The notes beneath the pieces are model-generated. The model did no database searches. It was not told where the DNA came from and saw only the letters and a program-made list of their open reading frames with translations. From positions 1 through 64,000 of the forward strand of contig JAIMBI010000014.1 of the NCBI GenBank assembly GCA_023565505.1: a DNA stretch of 64,000 nt. The letters run 5' to 3'. Both the position numbers and the translations under genes were made by a program. This DNA is from Actinomycetes bacterium. GTDB lineage: Bacteria > Bacillota > Sulfobacillia > Sulfobacillales > JAIMBI01. Positions 51,175 through 61,943 of this stretch are shown in pieces (the first letter of the stretch is position 1; each line of letters opens with the position of its first letter).

Positions 51175-52221
51175 TCAGGGCGTGACGCCGATGGGGACCA
51201 CCGCGGAGGCGACCTCGTACGCCGCGCGCTCGGCAGCGGTCTCGTTCGTCGGGGCCGAGGCCGGCCGCGCGTAGACCATCGCGTACCACGTCCCCGGGGC
51301 GTCGGCCGGGGTCGAGAAGGTGTCGGCCGGACCGTAGGGTCCGCTGCTCTCCCAGATGCCGGCCGGGGTCTTGAACCAGAACTGGAACACCGGATCCGCG
51401 ATGCCGCGGGGTTCCGCGGCGAAGGCCAGACGGCCGCCCAGGGGCACCCAGGTCCGGGTCGAGAGCACCACCGATCCCGTGGCCGTCGCCGGCGGCGGCG
51501 GGGCGACGGCGGTGCCGCCGCCCGACACGACCACCTGGTGAGTCGCCGACTTGGCCTCGTACCGGGCCTGTTGGGCCGCCGACTCGGGGTCGGGCGCCGT
51601 GGCCTCGCGCGCGTAGACCAGGACCTGCCACACACCCGGCTCCGTGTCGGGCACGGTGAAGGACGCCGCCGGGGCGAACGGGCCGCTCGACTGCCACCGC
51701 CCGTCGGGGCCGGCCCACCAGAACTGGAACACGGGATCCATGAACCCGTGGGGCACCGCCTCCACCGTGAGCGGAGACCCCGAAGCCACGGCGGCGGGCG
51801 CGAGAAGGCTCACCGTCTGGCCAGCGGCGTTCTGGTAGCCGGTCGTGGTCCCGTTGGGGTGCGCGGCCCAGTCCACCTCCACCGGCGTCGAGTAAGTGGT
51901 CAGCTCCGCCAGGAAGCGCTCCGTGCCGGGGTCGTTGGTGACCACCCGGGCCACCAGGGGGCTTTGACTCCCCGAGGCGACGATCTGGGCGGTGGTGACG
52001 TTGACGATGGCCAGGGTCTGGCCGGGGGCGAGCGGGGCCGCGGTCACGGCCGTGAGATCCACCGGCTCGCCCGTCCGCGCCTCCGGCAGGCTGGCCGTGA
52101 GGCTCACGGGCTGCCCGGTCGCCAAAGCCGTCCGGGCTTGCGCCGCGGCGGCCAACACCGCGAGTGCGCCGGGCACCAGCAGGGCGGCCAAGCGGCGGGA
52201 CCATCTCTGTCGCTCGTTCAT
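51175..52221 (-). CDS. Secreted protein with two 'FQFW...VYAR' (YQFW) domains
   Basis: Signal RRLAALLVPGALAVLAAAAQARTALA; PVFQFWWAGPDGRWQSSGPFAPAASFTVPDTEPGVWQVLVYAREATAPDPESAAQQARYE and PVFQFWFKTPAGIWESSGPYGPADTFSTPADAPGTWYAMVYARPASAPTNETAAERAAYE. Confidence 0.75.
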   Translation of the reverse strand: MNERQRWSRRLAALLVPGALAVLAAAAQARTALATGQPVSLTASLPEARTGEPVDLTAVTAAPLAPGQTLAIVNVTTAQIVASGSQSPLVARVVTNDPGTERFLAELTTYSTPVEVDWAAHPNGTTTGYQNAAGQTVSLLAPAAVASGSPLTVEAVPHGFMDPVFQFWWAGPDGRWQSSGPFAPAASFTVPDTEPGVWQVLVYAREATAPDPESAAQQARYEAKSATHQVVVSGGGTAVAPPPPATATGSVVLSTRTWVPLGGRLAFAAEPRGIADPVFQFWFKTPAGIWESSGPYGPADTFSTPADAPGTWYAMVYARPASAPTNETAAERAAYEVASAVVPIGVTP

Positions 52222-52636: not shown

Positions 52637-53927
52637 TCAGAACGGCACGTCCGGGTCGTCGTCCAAACGGTCCCTGGTGTTGAGCCTGTTGAACCTAGTG
52701 CGCCCAGCAGTCCACGGGAGTGTCTGCCTGCAGCGTGGAAAGTTGGTGCAGCCCCAGAAGCCTCGGTGGTCACGATGGTTGATTCGGACCACCAGACGGC
52801 CGTCACACCCCGCCCCGGGACACTTGGCGGTATTGACGTCCAGGGACATGACCACTCGTTGATTCATGGCCAGGGACAGCGTAGTGACGAAACGTGCGCC
52901 GGCCGCCAGCAGCACCGCCGCGCATTCTGCGGCGGTGCTCCCGGTGGTGATGATGTCGTCCACCAAGAGCACATGCTGTCCCCTCAACTCTCTGTCGCAG
53001 CGGAACGCCCCGGCTACGCCGTCGGCTCTCCAGGCTGCCCGCCGCCTTCTGGGGAGGATAGTCTCGGACACATTGCAGCAGGTCGGGCTGGAACCGCGGC
53101 CCAAGGGGGCGCGCAGCATTGACTCGCCCGAGCCGACAGGCCGCCTGCACAAGGTCGGCCAGCGAATCGGGCCGCCCGTGCCGCCTGTCGTCCGGCTTTT
53201 GCGGGACGCGCGTGATGGCGTCGAAGGGGCAGCCATCATCCACCCATCGGAGGGCAACAGCCAGCACCTCCACGAACGGCTCACGAGGGCCAGGCGATCG
53301 GTTCTTCAGATCCAAGAGTCTCCGGGTCGGCTGGTGGCAGCCGTGGCGCGCGTCTCCTTCGGGGAAATAGCGCCCCAACACGACGGTGCGCGTTGTCGAG
53401 CGGATGTGTTCCCGCAACGGCCGCGACGGCATCACCAGTGTTCCCGAGTTCCCCACCGGGCGGCCCGACTCGCCAATGGTGGTCAAAACCTCTCCAAAGT
53501 AACCGGGGACGCTGTCGGGCGTGACGTTGGCCAGGATGTCCGCCGCCTTGCTGATGTCATCGGCCATCACATCAGTCAGTGCCTCGTCCACGGGTTCGCT
53601 GCCGACGAGCACCGTACCGACACGGGTCCGGGCGGCCTCTGGAATCTCCCGGGGATCGCAGGTGACGTAGACCGCCTCATACGGCTGGGCGCCGGCCTCG
53701 TCCAAGGCGCGTTTGATGTTCGCCCGCACCGGATAGAGATACCCATCGGCCCAGAGGACGACGTGGTTGCCGGCACCCGTCGGGATGCCGGGCGGAGGCG
53801 GACCATCAACCAGGTAGACACACCGGACACGCGGCGCCAGTCTGGCACAGGCTCGCAAATCGACCGTCAGCCCGCTCTCCGGAACCCGGACGATGACGCA
53901 CCGCAGATCATTCAGCTCGACGAACAT
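52637..53927 (-). pseudogene. ComF-like phosphoribosyltransferase with HAD-like N-terminal region and topoisomerase-type Zn ribbon; coding split by a frameshift near 53000-53060
   Basis: Frame of 52803..53927 gives MFVELNDLRCVIVRVPES...ITRVPQKPDD...FQPDLLQCVRDYPPQKAAGSLESRR; frame of 52637..53284 supplies ...VAGAFRCDRELRGQHVLLVDDIITTGSTAAECAAVLLAAGARFVTTLSLAMNQ and CPGAGCDGRLVVRINHRDHRGFWGCTNFPRCRQTLPW. Confidence 0.7.
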
Positions 53928-54885
53928 CGACTGTCAGCAAGGGCGGGGCCGACGCGACCGTCCGCTGCGCCGTGAAGGGTTCTTGCTGGGGTATCAGGCC
54001 GTCTTCCTCGAGCACCATGAGGAGGTCCTCGATGGTGCGAAACACGTGCGCGCCTCGTGCGGCGAACGTCTTCGGCCACGTGAGGTCGGGCCGCTCAATC
54101 GCGCTCTGGGGGATGAACAGCTTGCGCCCTTGCTGCAGGCACTTTCGGGCCTGGATGAGGGCCCCGCTCGTCTCCGAGGCTTCCACCACCACCGTGCCGA
54201 GCGAGAGACCGCTCATCACCGCGTTGCGCATGGGGAAAAAGTATCGCTGAACCCGCTCTCCTGGGTAGAACTGCGATACGAGTGCTCCCGTCTCGGCGAT
54301 GAGCTCCTGGAGAGCGGCGTGTTCCTGCGGATACACGCGATCCACAGGGGTCCCGAGCACCGCCACGGTTTGGCCACCCCCCTCGAGGGCGCCGAGATGT
54401 GCCGCTTTGTCAATGCCCCGCGCGAGGCCCGATACGACGACGATGCCGCGCTGGCTCAGGAGGTAGCCCAGCTTCCGCGCCCGCCGCGCGCCGTCCTCCG
54501 AAGGCTGCCGGGTGCCGACCACGGCGATGGCCGGCCGGTACAGCAAGTCGAGGTCGCCGACCACGAAAAGGAACGCCGGCGCATCGGCAACCTCGCCCAG
54601 CCGAGGCGGATACTGAGGAGTTCCCCGTTCGACCACCGTCGCCCGGGGTCCCAGCTTGCGCATCCTGTGCAGGATGGACGCGTGAGTCTGCTGGACCACG
54701 TCAATCCCAGCACCCGTGGCGCGGGACACCAGCTTGAAGAAGTCCGGCAGCGGCAGATCCAGTGCGCCCTGAACCTTCCCCCAGAGTTGTCGGGCCTCGG
54801 CTTTTCGCGAGCGGGACAGCTCGGCAACGGTGAAGAAGGCGCACGCCCGTGCCCGCGCTCTGGAAGCGGCAGCTCGGTCCAGCAC
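53908..54885 (-). CDS. DprA/Smf-like (SLOG-fold) protein
   Basis: AIAVVGTRQPSEDGARRARKLGYLLSQRGIVVVSGLARGIDKAAHLGALEGGGQTVAVLGTPVDRVYPQEHAALQELIAETGALVSQFYPGERVQRYFFPMRNAVMSGLSLGTVVVEASETSGALIQARKCLQQGRKLFI. GTG 54885 with AGGGAGG SD; ORF open further upstream. C-terminus overlaps the PRTase start by 20 nt. Confidence 0.88.
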   Translation of the reverse strand: MLDRAAASRARARACAFFTVAELSRSRKAEARQLWGKVQGALDLPLPDFFKLVSRATGAGIDVVQQTHASILHRMRKLGPRATVVERGTPQYPPRLGEVADAPAFLFVVGDLDLLYRPAIAVVGTRQPSEDGARRARKLGYLLSQRGIVVVSGLARGIDKAAHLGALEGGGQTVAVLGTPVDRVYPQEHAALQELIAETGALVSQFYPGERVQRYFFPMRNAVMSGLSLGTVVVEASETSGALIQARKCLQQGRKLFIPQSAIERPDLTWPKTFAARGAHVFRTIEDLLMVLEEDGLIPQQEPFTAQRTVASAPPLLTVDVRRAE

Positions 54886-55669
54886 GGCGTAACGTCCCTC
54901 CCTCGTTTCAGGACGGTGCCTTCTTTCCCTCACGGCGGATGAACGCGCACGGATGTGCCGGCCCGCTGGTAGCATACCCCTTTTTTCCCTGACCGGAAGC
55001 CCCTTTGGCGGGTGGATTCGCCCAGCCGACAGCCGTCTCCTTCCGCCCGCCTGGCCTGTGCCACCCCCCAGGGTCTTGCCGTCGCGCTCCCCTGGCGCGG
55101 AGACGCTCGCCGCCCTGCGCTCTCGTGAGGCCCGGGGCGCATCGAGACACCCCCGGATCCGGCGGACGCTGTGGCCGCGCAACCGGCAGCGCGCTCGGCC
55201 CAGGGCACCCAGACGGCCTCGAAAGCCTTCAGGCGCGGGGCACGCCCGCCGCGAGCCGATAGTCCGTCTGGCCGTCGAGGCGGCCTGAAATCCCCGGAAC
55301 TACCGAGGCGTCCTGGCCATCCGGTCGTCGCATGGCCGCCACGGAGCAACGGGCCCAAGCCCAGGGGGGTCGGGCCAGGGAGCCGGTCCCGAGGCAGCGG
55401 GCAACCGCGGGGCCGCGCCTCGCCCAGTCCGCCCCGGCCGGCCGGACACCGGGCGTGCCGTGGACTCCCCCACCACGTCCGTCGGACCGGCCCGCACGGG
55501 CGCCGCCTTCCAACCGGCTCCCCTACCCGAACTTGCCGACCCCCGGTCGGGTAGCGGACGTGCTCCCCCTTTCCTCCCGCCTGGGTCTTCCGGGAGCACC
55601 GGGCACGCCTCGGCGAAAGCCAACCGGATCCGGTGACGCGGCGTTAACCGAATCGAGGGGGGTCGGGCT

Positions 55670-57469: not shown

Positions 57470-57635
57470 ACCCGGCTCCGAGGGGCGGCGCCCCCCAGCC
57501 CCGGATGGGTTGACTCGGCCGGACCCTGGGCTCACCCGTGCCCGTCGGCGCATGGCTCCCCGCGGCGACCGGATCCGTACGACCTCCGGGAGAGCCCCGA
57601 AGTGCCGTGCCCCGGCGACGATCGACCCCGGCAGC

Positions 57636-57663
57636 TTGCGGCCGGGCCAGGTTGCCATATACT
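57636..57663 (+). promoter_or_regulatory. Candidate sigma-A-type promoter
   Basis: TTGCGG (57636-57641), 16-nt spacer, TATACT (57658-57663), about 50 bp upstream of ATG 57716. Confidence 0.5.
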
Positions 57664-57715
57664 GGGTGCCAGGGATCCGTCGGCGACCGCGCGAGGAAGA
57701 GGAAGGGAACCGTCG

Positions 57716-59611
57716 ATGTCTTTTCCGCCGTGGAGGCGCCTCGCGGCGACAAGCGTGCTCCTGGGTCTCGTGATGCCCGCCGTGGCCCACGCGGCGCCGG
57801 CGCGGGTGTCCGACCTCGTCGCGACCGGGCCCTCCGGGTCCGTGGCACCGGGCACGACCGCGATCTTCACCGCCCACGCCAACGGCAACGGGGCGACGCC
57901 CTGGTACCAGTTCTGGGTGGAGACGGAGGCCGGCTGGCAGCTCGCCCGCGACTACGGACCGGACGGCACGCTCACCCTCACGGACCTCGCGCCGGGCAGC
58001 TACGTGGTCGTCGTCTACGCCTTGGACGCCGGCCAGGTCGCCGCCGGGGAGTGGAGCGCCGCCCTGTCCCGGACGTTCGTGCTGAACGTGGCCAGCCGCG
58101 TGACCCTCACCGTGCCCGCCGCGGCGACCGCCGGTCGCCCGGTCACGCTCGGGGCCCAAGCCAGCCATCTCATCGATCCGGTCTACCAGTGGTGGTGGGA
58201 GGACCCGGCGGGCCAGTGGCACGCCAGCGGGGACTATGCCCCGGCGGCGACGTTCACCTGGACGCCCGGCATGGCGGGTACGTATCACGTCGTCGTCTAC
58301 GCGAAGGACCCCCTGGCGCCGAACAACGCCACGGACGCGGTGTGGTCGACGGTCGCCACCTTGACCGTCCGCCCGCTCACGCTCGCCTACGGGTCGTTCA
58401 GCCTGACGGGCACGACGCCTGGTCATGCGTGGTACGACCTCCGGACCCACGCCGCCCAGCTCTCGGCAATCGCCCCGCTGTGGTACCGCTTCGACCCCAA
58501 CGCCCCGACCCCCTTGAGCGCCACGGCCGACGCCGCCACCATGGCCACGGTGACCGCGTTCGCGCGGGCCCACGGCGTCAGGGTGTGGCCTTGCGTCACG
58601 GCCGCCGGACCCGTCCCGGACGCCTGGTGGTCGAGTCCGTCCGCCGCCGCGCTGGTCGCGACGCTCGTGACCACGGCCGCCGCCCAGGGTTACCAGGGCT
58701 ACGTCCTCGACTGGGAGACCGTCGCCCCCGGCCAGGCAGAAGCCTTCGCGGCCTTCGTCGGGCGGCTCGCGGCGGCGCTCCATGCCGCCGGCGCCTCGCT
58801 GACCGTCGACGTCCTGCCGCCGCCGAACGCCGCGTACGACCTGCCCGCCCTGGCGGCGGCCGCGGACTATGTCGACCTGCTGGCCTACCCGGAGTACACC
58901 ACCGCCACGCCCTCGGCCGTCGCGCCCAACCCCGGGCCGACCGCCGGGGCACCCTGGGTCGCCCGGGCGCTCCAGGCCGCCCTGGCCGGGGTTCCGGCCA
59001 GTCACCTGCTGCTCGGGATCTCCCCCTACGGGCAGAGCTGGACGTACACCAACGCCGGCTTCCAGGGCGGGACGGCCATCCCCGACCGCACCATCGCCGC
59101 CAACCTGGCCGCCGTCCCGGCTCCTACCGTCTGGGACCCCGTACAGCAGGAGGCCGTCATCTCCACCGGGCCGACGCCGGTGGTGCCGCCGGCCCCGCTG
59201 GCCCCCAATCCCGGGGTCTTCAGCCCGGCGGTCCAGCATTTGCAGTTCCTGCTCAATCAGGTGCTCCTCCGCTATGCGGTGGATCACGGGCTTCCGCCGC
59301 CCGCCCCGCTCGCCACCGACGGCGGCTACGGCCCGCTCACCGCCGCCGCCGTCGCCGCCTTCCAGCAGGACTACGGCCTCGCCGCGGCGACGCCGGGCGT
59401 TTACGACGCGAGCACGGCCGCGCGGCTCCAGTCCGTGGTCGACGCGGACGGCATCGGCGACACCGTCACCTGGGACGAGAACACCCGGGCGGCGGCGGTC
59501 CTCCTCGGTCTCGCCGCGGACGCCCACGTCGGCGGCATGAGCCTGTGGCGCCTCGGCTACCAGGCCCCCGACTTCTGGCCGATGCTGGCGTGCACGCCGT
59601 TCGGACCGTAG
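57716..59611 (+). CDS. Secreted protein: two YQFW domains + GH18-type TIM barrel with inserted PG-binding domain
   Basis: PWYQFWVETEAGWQLARDYGP...VVVVYALD and PVYQWWWEDPAGQWHASGDYAP...HVVVYAKD; YQGYVLDWETVAPGQAEAF; YVDLLAYPEY; ATDGGYGPLTAAAVAAFQQDYGL; GGMSLWRLGYQ. Confidence 0.8.
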   Translation: MSFPPWRRLAATSVLLGLVMPAVAHAAPARVSDLVATGPSGSVAPGTTAIFTAHANGNGATPWYQFWVETEAGWQLARDYGPDGTLTLTDLAPGSYVVVVYALDAGQVAAGEWSAALSRTFVLNVASRVTLTVPAAATAGRPVTLGAQASHLIDPVYQWWWEDPAGQWHASGDYAPAATFTWTPGMAGTYHVVVYAKDPLAPNNATDAVWSTVATLTVRPLTLAYGSFSLTGTTPGHAWYDLRTHAAQLSAIAPLWYRFDPNAPTPLSATADAATMATVTAFARAHGVRVWPCVTAAGPVPDAWWSSPSAAALVATLVTTAAAQGYQGYVLDWETVAPGQAEAFAAFVGRLAAALHAAGASLTVDVLPPPNAAYDLPALAAAADYVDLLAYPEYTTATPSAVAPNPGPTAGAPWVARALQAALAGVPASHLLLGISPYGQSWTYTNAGFQGGTAIPDRTIAANLAAVPAPTVWDPVQQEAVISTGPTPVVPPAPLAPNPGVFSPAVQHLQFLLNQVLLRYAVDHGLPPPAPLATDGGYGPLTAAAVAAFQQDYGLAAATPGVYDASTAARLQSVVDADGIGDTVTWDENTRAAAVLLGLAADAHVGGMSLWRLGYQAPDFWPMLACTPFGP

Positions 59612-60101: not shown

Positions 60102-61943
60102 CTGCGGCAGGTTCCCCATCGCCTCGGACGCACGCTGCTGGTCGGCTGGACGCTGCTGCTGGCCGTCTTCACCCTGACCACGCCGGCACGGGCCGCCGGC
60201 CCGACCGTGACGGCGGTGACGCTCACCGTCTCGGGGCCCGTCCGTCCCGGTGCGACGGTCACGCTCACTGCCGCCGCCGTCGACCCCGGCGGTCAGCCGG
60301 AATACCAGTTCTGGGTCGAGACGCAGACGGGATGGCGAGCCGTCCAGGGTTACAGCCCGACCCCCACGTACACCCTCTCCCTTGAGGCGGGAAGCGCCGT
60401 CGTGGTGGTCTACGCCCTGGACCGTGCCGCCGTGGCCGCCGGAGCGTGGTCCCAAGCCCGCGCAGCGGAGACGGTCCTCGACGTCGGAAGCACGGTGAGC
60501 GTGACCGCGTCGGCCTCCTCCGTGCCACTCGGCGAGGCCGTCACCGTGAAGGCCGCCGCAACCGGTCTCATCCGTCCAGTCTACCAGTTCTGGGTGAGGG
60601 ATCCCGAAGGCCGCTGGACCGGTACCGCCTTCTCCGCCTCCCCCACGCTCCCGGTGACGCCGACCGGCACGAGCGGGATCTGGGAGGTGGTGGTGTACGC
60701 CAAGGACGCGGAGGCCCCCGACGTGCCCGCCGATCTCGTCGACGCCACCACCACCTTCCAAGCGTACGGACCCGCGGCCGCCCTCGCGTTCGTCTCCGCC
60801 GCCCCGTACGTGCCGGCCGACGGGACTTTCACCAAGACCTTCACGGCCACCGTCGTCGACGCCGACGGCACACCGGTCGCCGACCTCAACGGCGCGCTCA
60901 CGCTCACGTACGCCAACCCGGAGGGGGACCGGAGCCAGGGCGCGGTGTCGGTCTGGAACGGCTCCGCCTTCGTGACGGCGGGCCCGGTGACCATCCCGGT
61001 CCGCGACGGTGTCGCCCAAGTGACGGTGCGGGCCGGGTCCACGCCCGGGGTAACGGACGTGCTCGACCTCGCCGGGACCGTAGGTCAAGGTCGCTTGACC
61101 GTGCTCGCGGCGGCGCCGGATCCGACGGCCCAGGTCGGTTATCGCTTCTTCACGCCCCAGGGGGTCCCGCTGGGCGCCCAGAACCCCCTCGTCCTCGCCG
61201 ACACGGGGGCTATTGAGTTGCTCTTGAAGCCGGTGAACGCGTGGGGCGAGCCGGTGGCCGCCACGTTCGCCGACGACGCGCTCCTGTCCACGCCGTCACC
61301 GGTGTGTCTCGTGTCCTGCGGATCCGGCTCGTCCGGCGGATCCTTCGCCACGTCCCCCAACACCTTGAGCGTAGGTCCCAACCTCAGCGTGTACGTACCC
61401 GCCGGCACCACCGCGGTGCCGGTGTGGTACACGCCGCCGTTGGCCGACACGTTCGTCCCGCTGGCCGCGCCGGCCGGCCCGGCCTACGCGCTGGTCACGA
61501 CGTTCACCGACCCGGCCACGGGTCAAACCCTTCCCGCCGCGCCCGCCGCGGGAGCGCCGCCCGGGGTGTTCATCCCTGCCGGACTCGCGCCCCGTTTCGA
61601 GACCGTGACCGGCGTGGAGCCGGGCACCACCTACACGGTGACAGCCCAGCTGTATGATCTGTTCGGCCATGCCCTGACGGGGCTGCCGGCGGATCTCCTC
61701 CCCCTGGCCCGCGGCCCGGTCGACGACACGGTGGCGGTGGGCATCGCCTCGCCGTGGGGCCGGAGTCCCGCGTCCCAGGTCACCGGCGCCCGCCTCGGCG
61801 ACGGGGGGACCCTCCAGTTCACCTACACGGCGGGGGCCTCTCTCGGGCGCCCCGATGTCCTGGAGCTGACCCTCGACTGGAGCCGACAGACGGGACCCAC
61901 CACCGAGGGGATCCTGACGCTCGTGTCCACCAACGCCTTCTGA
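60102..61943 (+). CDS. Secreted protein with two YQFW domains and Ig-like/adhesin-type repeats; probable CTG start
   Basis: ORF track begins at GTG 60207 but the frame is open upstream and encodes (L/M)RQVPHRLGRTLLVGWTLLLAVFTLTTPARAAG; AAGGAGG at 60086-60092 sits 9 nt before CTG 60102. Domains PEYQFWVETQTGWRAVQGYSP...VVVVYALD and PVYQFWVRDPEGRWTG...EVVVYAKD. Confidence 0.75.
   Translation: MRQVPHRLGRTLLVGWTLLLAVFTLTTPARAAGPTVTAVTLTVSGPVRPGATVTLTAAAVDPGGQPEYQFWVETQTGWRAVQGYSPTPTYTLSLEAGSAVVVVYALDRAAVAAGAWSQARAAETVLDVGSTVSVTASASSVPLGEAVTVKAAATGLIRPVYQFWVRDPEGRWTGTAFSASPTLPVTPTGTSGIWEVVVYAKDAEAPDVPADLVDATTTFQAYGPAAALAFVSAAPYVPADGTFTKTFTATVVDADGTPVADLNGALTLTYANPEGDRSQGAVSVWNGSAFVTAGPVTIPVRDGVAQVTVRAGSTPGVTDVLDLAGTVGQGRLTVLAAAPDPTAQVGYRFFTPQGVPLGAQNPLVLADTGAIELLLKPVNAWGEPVAATFADDALLSTPSPVCLVSCGSGSSGGSFATSPNTLSVGPNLSVYVPAGTTAVPVWYTPPLADTFVPLAAPAGPAYALVTTFTDPATGQTLPAAPAAGAPPGVFIPAGLAPRFETVTGVEPGTTYTVTAQLYDLFGHALTGLPADLLPLARGPVDDTVAVGIASPWGRSPASQVTGARLGDGGTLQFTYTAGASLGRPDVLELTLDWSRQTGPTTEGILTLVSTNAF

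What the first reader, a model, noticed from the sequence alone, without database searches (positions are those of the whole stretch)
52637..54885. Low-GC two-gene island: DprA/Smf-like protein + ComF-like PRTase with topoisomerase Zn ribbon, a candidate defence or nucleotide-sensing module
Seen: two minus-strand genes overlapping by 20 nt. The first has the full DprA Rossmann motif set (SGLARGIDKAAH...VYPQEH...FFPMRNAVMSGLS...SGALIQA). The second combines a PRPP loop (VLLVDDIITTGSTAAE) with a C-x4-C/C-x5-C ribbon like type IA topoisomerase C-termini (GFWGCTNFPRC). Hand GC counts of lines 53881 (34/60) and 54241 (36/60) are about 57-60%, versus 43/60 for line 45001, suggesting horizontal acquisition. 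Knowledge: DprA belongs to the SLOG superfamily, which recurs in nucleotide-centred conflict systems; housekeeping dprA and comF are usually not one two-gene operon with a DNA-binding ribbon. Inference: the pair may act in DNA or nucleotide surveillance rather than competence. The N-terminal part (NIKRALDEAG...VYVTCDPREIPEAARTRVGTVLVG) may be HAD-like.
Basis: partly seen in the sequence, partly recalled or inferred. Interest (0 to 1): 0.8.

Follow-up and report, generated by a model that had tools for sequence, protein, structure and literature searches.

The report
ShosTA-like toxin–antitoxin pair, toxin broken
This is a horizontally acquired two-gene module of the known ShosTA kind (a DprA-like antitoxin plus a phosphoribosyltransferase toxin used against phages), in a poorly described branch whose toxin adds a zinc ribbon and a tail that looks like the end of the cell's own single-strand DNA-binding protein; in this genome the toxin gene carries a frameshift.

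Summary
Gene 1 (53908–54885, −) is a DprA in a clade of toxin-linked DprAs, apart from housekeeping DprA (PADLOC ShosA 4.8e-74; tree 95/88). Gene 2 (53927–52637, −) encodes a degenerate HAD-like domain, a ComF-type phosphoribosyltransferase and a zinc ribbon, but is split by a frameshift near 53012–53030. Nine relatives have it intact beside DprA, some in prophages or beside a recombinase. The three solved ShosT structures are the top fold matches of a relative's model (E 3–4e-9). So this is a ShosTA-type toxin–antitoxin variant. It is the only dprA in the genome because this bacterial family lacks a housekeeping copy. GC is 66.8% against 73.9 ± 2.2%: acquired, but not 57–60%. New here: toxins of this clade end in an SSB-like tip (window DDDPDVPF, L011 FDDIPF, others DWDLPF); among 3,320 ORFs only SSBs and these toxins end so. 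I infer, unproven, that tip and ribbon bring the toxin to ssDNA/SSB repair sites or to DprA. In the window the module is probably inactive, unless the frameshift is an assembly error.

The parts
53908..54885 (-). dprA-like antitoxin gene (ShosA-type), GTG start, 325 aa, lacks the N-terminal excisionase-type HTH seen in several relatives
   Evidence: PF02481 1.6e-64; PADLOC ShosA PDLC03961 4.8e-74; tree position
54894..54903 (-). purine-rich putative ribosome-binding site (GAGGGAGGGA) before the GTG start
   Evidence: read from the sequence
52637..53927 (-). toxin-like gene, HAD-like + PRTase + zinc ribbon, broken by a frameshift; overlaps dprA by 20 nt
   Evidence: tblastn with intact relatives L011/L012/L013 in two frames; profile match in two pieces 1.9e-82 and 7.2e-54
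53373..53927 (-). N-terminal degenerate HAD-like domain (motif I Asp absent: CVIVRVPES; motif IV region VTCDPREIPEA); boundary approximate
   Evidence: alignment to rhizobial HAD-IA-PRTase proteins; fold of a relative
53012..53030 (-). site of the one-base frameshift
   Evidence: three-frame translation against relatives
52934..52972 (-). PRPP loop VLLVDDIITTGST
   Evidence: sequence; PF00156
52730..52822 (-). topoisomerase-type zinc ribbon, C-x4-C ... C-x5-C
   Evidence: PF01396 6.7e-6, below the curated cut-off; the cysteines align in the relatives
52640..52663 (-). SSB-like C-terminal tip DDDPDVPF, Phe is the last residue
   Evidence: compared with host SSB tails ...PDDLPF and ...EPESVPF and the ORF survey

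Best explanation
The pair is a horizontally acquired toxin-antitoxin module of the ShosTA kind. Shown by sequence: a toxin-linked DprA upstream of, and overlapping, a gene for a degenerate HAD domain fused to a ComF-type PRTase with an intact PRPP loop, a zinc ribbon and an SSB-like C-terminal tip; intact relatives occur in prophages and integrative elements. Inferred from the literature on ShosTA and RqlHI: the PRTase is toxic, using PRPP and disturbing purines or DNA, while the DprA partner holds it in check and phage infection tips the balance. Inferred here: the ribbon and SSB-like tip target the toxin to ssDNA repair sites, or are the handle by which the DprA partner or SSB-binding proteins hold it, in place of the RecQ helicase of RqlH/PsyrT. 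In the window the frameshift has probably inactivated the toxin while the antitoxin stays intact.
For: DprA: PADLOC ShosA 4.8e-74; 13-member clade of toxin-linked DprAs 95/88, sister to phage P2-type ShosA 99/94, apart from class housekeeping DprAs. Toxin: nine intact relatives next to DprA (L011, L012, L013, L101, L102, L104, L107, L110, L112); profile match to HAD-IA-PRTase-Zn proteins 5.7e-35 and to the solved-ShosT family 7e-7; the top three PDB fold matches of the phiOH2 toxin model are ShosT 8zvb/c/d at 2.8-4.3e-9. Mobility: phage phiOH2, prophage with RusA, terminase and portal, serine recombinase beside the pair in L102; low GC and GC3; sporadic in the order. Mechanism precedent: the RqlH PRTase domain is genotoxic, needs the PRPP-pocket Asp, and is countered by DprA-like RqlI (PMC4670107); ShosT disturbs purine metabolism and ShosA binds DNA (review PMC12593503). 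Tip: [DE].?[ILV]PF at the very end in 17 of 3,320 ORFs, 12 of them from the SSB loci and 5 these toxins.
Against: Toxicity, neutralisation and phage defence are untested in this branch. By sequence alone, PADLOC ShosT models match only a PRTase segment (best 4.2e-8 over 46 aa) and no ShosT chain in the PDB is reached by hmmsearch. TM-scores to ShosT are low (0.31) with an uncertain domain arrangement. The window copy is frameshifted. The tip is exact in only 3 of 8 toxin lineages, and in L013 it is poor (LDKF). No defence or mobile genes flank the window copy.
Confidence: 0.83

Rival explanations
1. The pair is the organism's housekeeping dprA with a competence comF gene, serving DNA uptake.
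For: It is the only DprA in the genome, and DprA and ComF are both competence proteins; the PRTase part matches ComF models.
Against: The DprA lies in the toxin-linked clade, not with the class housekeeping DprAs; 6 of 6 other family members lack any DprA, so there is no sign of a vertical competence copy; gene 2 has an HAD-like domain and a C-terminal zinc ribbon; relatives sit in phages and plasmids.
Confidence: 0.04
2. The toxin gene is intact in the living organism and the frameshift is a sequencing or assembly error, so the module is active.
For: Both parts keep their conserved residues (PRPP loop, four cysteines, tip); the genome is a 49-contig assembly with 6.6% estimated contamination; one-base errors are common in high-GC assemblies (general knowledge).
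Against: The close relatives L010 and L014 have toxin stubs beside an open DprA, so toxin loss happens in this clade.
Confidence: 0.4
3. The window holds an orphan antitoxin: the toxin decayed first, and dprA persists as a neutral remnant or as protection against related invading modules.
For: Toxin broken or missing in four of 13 clade loci (window, L010, L014, L103), antitoxin open in all 13.
Against: Most loci were found by their DprA, which biases this count; toxin-first searches gave only pairs.
Confidence: 0.5
4. Programmed frameshifting makes the full toxin at a low level.
For: One-base shift between two otherwise well-conserved frames.
Against: All nine intact relatives read the gene in one frame, and I saw no classical slippery heptamer at the site.
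Confidence: 0.03

Closest known systems
ShosTA (solved ShosT 8zvb/8zvc/8zvd, ShosA 8zva/9vzo)
   Same: DprA-like antitoxin next to an HAD-like + PRTase toxin of about 400 aa; top fold matches
   Different: Toxin has a zinc ribbon and SSB-like tip where the solved-ShosT relatives end in WDWP; sequence similarity is remote; the window DprA is closer to the P2-type ShosA model PDLC03961 than to PDLC02997 (4.8e-74 against 5e-22)
P2-phage DprA-PRTase system (PADLOC PDLC03961/PDLC03962; PMC9122126)
   Same: Closest antitoxin clade; DprA then PRTase, often in phages
   Different: Its toxin is a short PRTase (about 200-225 aa) with no HAD domain or zinc ribbon found
RqlHI / PsyrTA
   Same: DprA-like antitoxin, C-terminal PRTase toxin domain; the PRTase section aligns with the PsyrT model
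   Different: RqlH/PsyrT carries a RecQ-like helicase; this toxin has none
Rhizobial and Psychrobacter plasmid HAD-IA-PRTase + DprA pairs (L108, L166, L167)
   Same: Same domain order; ribbon aligns; profile E 5.7e-35
   Different: HAD motif I (DxDxT) intact there, lost here; their DprAs form a different clade

Membership tests
ShosTA | DprA-like antitoxin adjacent to the toxin gene | tested here: met
ShosTA | PRTase toxin with intact PRPP loop | tested here: met
   DDIITTGST present, in the 3' frame
ShosTA | HAD-like domain N-terminal to the PRTase | tested here: met
   in relatives by profile and fold; in the window copy by alignment only
ShosTA | Full-length sequence match to a ShosT model | tested here: not met
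   only PRTase segments match PADLOC ShosT; hmmsearch finds no PDB ShosT
ShosTA | Uninterrupted toxin gene | tested here: not met
   frameshift in the window; intact in nine relatives
ShosTA | Toxicity neutralised by the antitoxin, and phage protection | not testable with these tools
   needs experiments
P2-type DprA-PRTase | Short stand-alone PRTase toxin (PDLC03962 over its length) | tested here: not met
   window and relatives 1e-5 to 1e-8 over part of the model, against 1e-41 and 1e-44 for phages Mana and Riah
PsyrTA/RqlHI | RecQ-like helicase domain in the toxin | tested here: not met
   no helicase hit in window pieces or relatives
Housekeeping DprA | Groups with the DprAs carried by other genomes of the class | tested here: not met
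   tree; absent from the family
SSB C-terminal tip | Acidic residues then [ILV]-P-F as the very last residues, after a variable linker | tested here: met
   window DDDPDVPF; exact in 3 of 8 toxin lineages, terminal Phe in all eight
SSB C-terminal tip | Binds SSB-interacting proteins | not testable with these tools
   no complex prediction available

The most novel reading that the evidence does not exclude
A branch of DprA/PRTase toxin-antitoxin systems carries a mimic of the SSB C-terminal tip on the toxin. The tip lets DprA or SSB-binding repair proteins hold the toxin, so that phage replication, which floods the cell with ssDNA and SSB tails, displaces or re-targets it: infection sensed by competition for the SSB-tip pocket.
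Probability: 0.3. Interest if true: 0.75.

Novelty: new variant of a known kind. Interest (0 to 1): 0.45.

Why it matters
ShosTA is reported to respond to phage proteins including an ssDNA-binding protein (gp32; PMC10732053) and T7 Gp0.7 (PMC12593503), and how it senses them is open. A toxin branch with a zinc ribbon and an SSB-like tip gives a simple testable link between sensing and ssDNA metabolism. It also shows DprA-guarded PRTases carrying interchangeable companion modules (none in P2-type, RecQ in RqlH, ribbon plus tip here), and explains a sole dprA in a lineage that otherwise lacks one.

Tried and rejected
Empty-site comparison: the flanking genes have no close syntenic copies in the six same-family genomes, so the insertion could not be dated. 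Viral-contig scans with toxins found only phiOH2 again, and alignment A2 was too divergent to scan with. Flank repeats, promoters and terminators gave nothing that bounds an element. Neighbour scan for defence genes: nothing near the pair; weak hits to parts of large defence proteins elsewhere in the window were discounted. The first structure model (L011 toxin, pLDDT 57) was too weak in the N-terminus; the phiOH2 toxin gave 69. The idea that all ShosT proteins have an SSB-like tip was rejected: eight of nine P2-type ShosT do not end in Phe, Riah (DEAFEF) being the exception, and the solved-ShosT relatives end in WDWP. Terminal-Phe invariance alone is weak evidence, since 28 columns of A4 are invariant; the exact-tip survey is the stronger test, though the rows are related by descent and the pattern was written after seeing the toxins and knowing the SSB tail.

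Full report
What is there. On the minus strand, dprA (GTG at 54885, stop at 53908) is followed with a 20-nt overlap by a second gene starting at ATG 53927. Translation in the frames shows that the second gene is split: intact relatives align to the window in one frame over their first ~290-300 residues and in another frame for the rest, with the shift near 53012-53030, and a profile of relatives matches the window in two pieces (1.9e-82 and 7.2e-54). Both pieces keep their conserved residues, including the PRPP loop, four ribbon cysteines and the C-terminal tip.

Composition. The pair is 66.8% GC, the lowest 2.2-kb stretch in a window averaging 73.9% (sd 2.2); GC3 is 0.78-0.79 against 0.91-0.93 in neighbouring genes. 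Neighbours are glycosyltransferases, BNR/sortilin-like and GH18 secreted proteins, with no defence or mobile genes found.

Which DprA. It is the only DprA in the 97.6%-complete genome. None of six other family members has one, and in the order only a handful of genomes do. Three of those (G011, G017, G036) carry the same DprA + PRTase + ribbon pair. A tree of 44 DprAs puts the window copy in a clade of 13 toxin-linked DprAs (95/88), sister to P2-type ShosA (99/94), away from the DprAs of other genomes of the class. PADLOC names it ShosA at 4.8e-74. The lineage therefore appears to have no housekeeping dprA; this is an accessory copy.

Which toxin. Nine relatives have the second gene intact: L011, L012, L013, L101, L102, L104, L107 (phage phiOH2), L110 and L112. 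Profile comparison ties them to HAD-IA-PRTase-ribbon proteins that sit beside DprA on rhizobial and Psychrobacter plasmids (5.7e-35) and more remotely to the family of the solved ShosT (7e-7). The plasmid forms keep the HAD motif DxDxT; in the window clade it is degraded. A model of the phiOH2 toxin (pLDDT 69, N-terminal core mostly above 75) has the three ShosT crystal structures as its best PDB matches (2.8-4.3e-9), though the low TM-score shows that the domain arrangement is not settled. The window's own broken protein was not modelled.

Mobility. In phage phiOH2 the pair lies between an ArpU-type activator and the terminase genes; in L011 it lies between RusA and terminase/portal genes; in L102 it lies near a large serine recombinase, and a similar arrangement, with an HtrA-like PDZ fragment downstream, is seen in L104. 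Related HAD-PRTase + DprA pairs are plasmid cargo.

The tip. All toxins of the clade end in Phe: eight lineages, window included. Window: DDDPDVPF. L011: FDDIPF. L101/L102/L104: DWDLPF. E. coli SSB ends DDDIPF and S. aureus SsbA DDDLPF, the protein-binding tail (PMC5531588); the window genome's own two SSBs end PDDLPF and EPESVPF. Of 3,320 distinct ORFs of at least 120 aa in all fetched loci, 17 end in [DE].?[ILV]PF: five are these toxins and the other twelve come from the SSB loci. Fisher p is about 1e-8 for 3 of 8 lineages against none of about 3,300 others, rows not being fully independent. This is a real resemblance; its function is inferred.

How it likely works. In RqlHI the PRTase domain is the genotoxic part, needs its PRPP-pocket aspartate, and is restrained by the DprA-like RqlI, which binds it (PMC4670107). 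ShosT is described as a PRTase and pyrophosphatase that disturbs purine metabolism, with ShosA binding DNA, triggered by T7 Gp0.7 (review PMC12593503); a DprA-PRTase pair protects against T7 and lambda (PMC9122126). By family the window pair should act alike. In this branch the ribbon and SSB-like tip would place the toxin at ssDNA, or on SSB-binding proteins or DprA, doing what the RecQ helicase may do in RqlH. These last steps are inference.

State in this genome. The toxin is frameshifted; the sister locus L010 has a 58-residue stub, L014 a stub, L103 none, all with an open DprA. Either the toxin is decaying while the antitoxin stays, or the frameshift is an assembly error; reads are needed.

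Verdict. Not a new kind of system: a new variant of the known DprA/PRTase toxin-antitoxin class, with a new and testable SSB-tip feature.

Noticed in passing
L203, L205, L206 (rhizobial plasmids): Two different DprA/PRTase pairs sit tail to tail: a P2-type ShosA with a short ShosT, and a 414-aa HAD-PRTase (2.6e-60 to the solved ShosT in L203) with its own DprA.
   Followed up: partly
L167, whole 6,238-bp Psychrobacter plasmid pA3H5: A tiny plasmid whose only annotated genes are MobA/L, an HAD-PRTase, DprA and RepB: the pair as sole cargo.
   Followed up: no
L102 and L104: DprA-toxin pair near a large serine recombinase, with an HtrA-like PDZ fragment and what looks like rlmH downstream; a possible shared integration site.
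   Followed up: partly
L108:2317-5319: TrlF-family ATPase directly downstream of the DprA-HAD-PRTase pair on a Sinorhizobium plasmid.
   Followed up: no
window 51178-52221, 57602-59611, 60207-61943: Secreted-looking proteins that share related repeat stretches (Y_Y_Y-like); the first matches parts of the other two in the own-genome search.
   Followed up: no
G000:C34 and G000:C48: The genome has two SSB genes with different tails (EPESVPF and PDDLPF).
   Followed up: no
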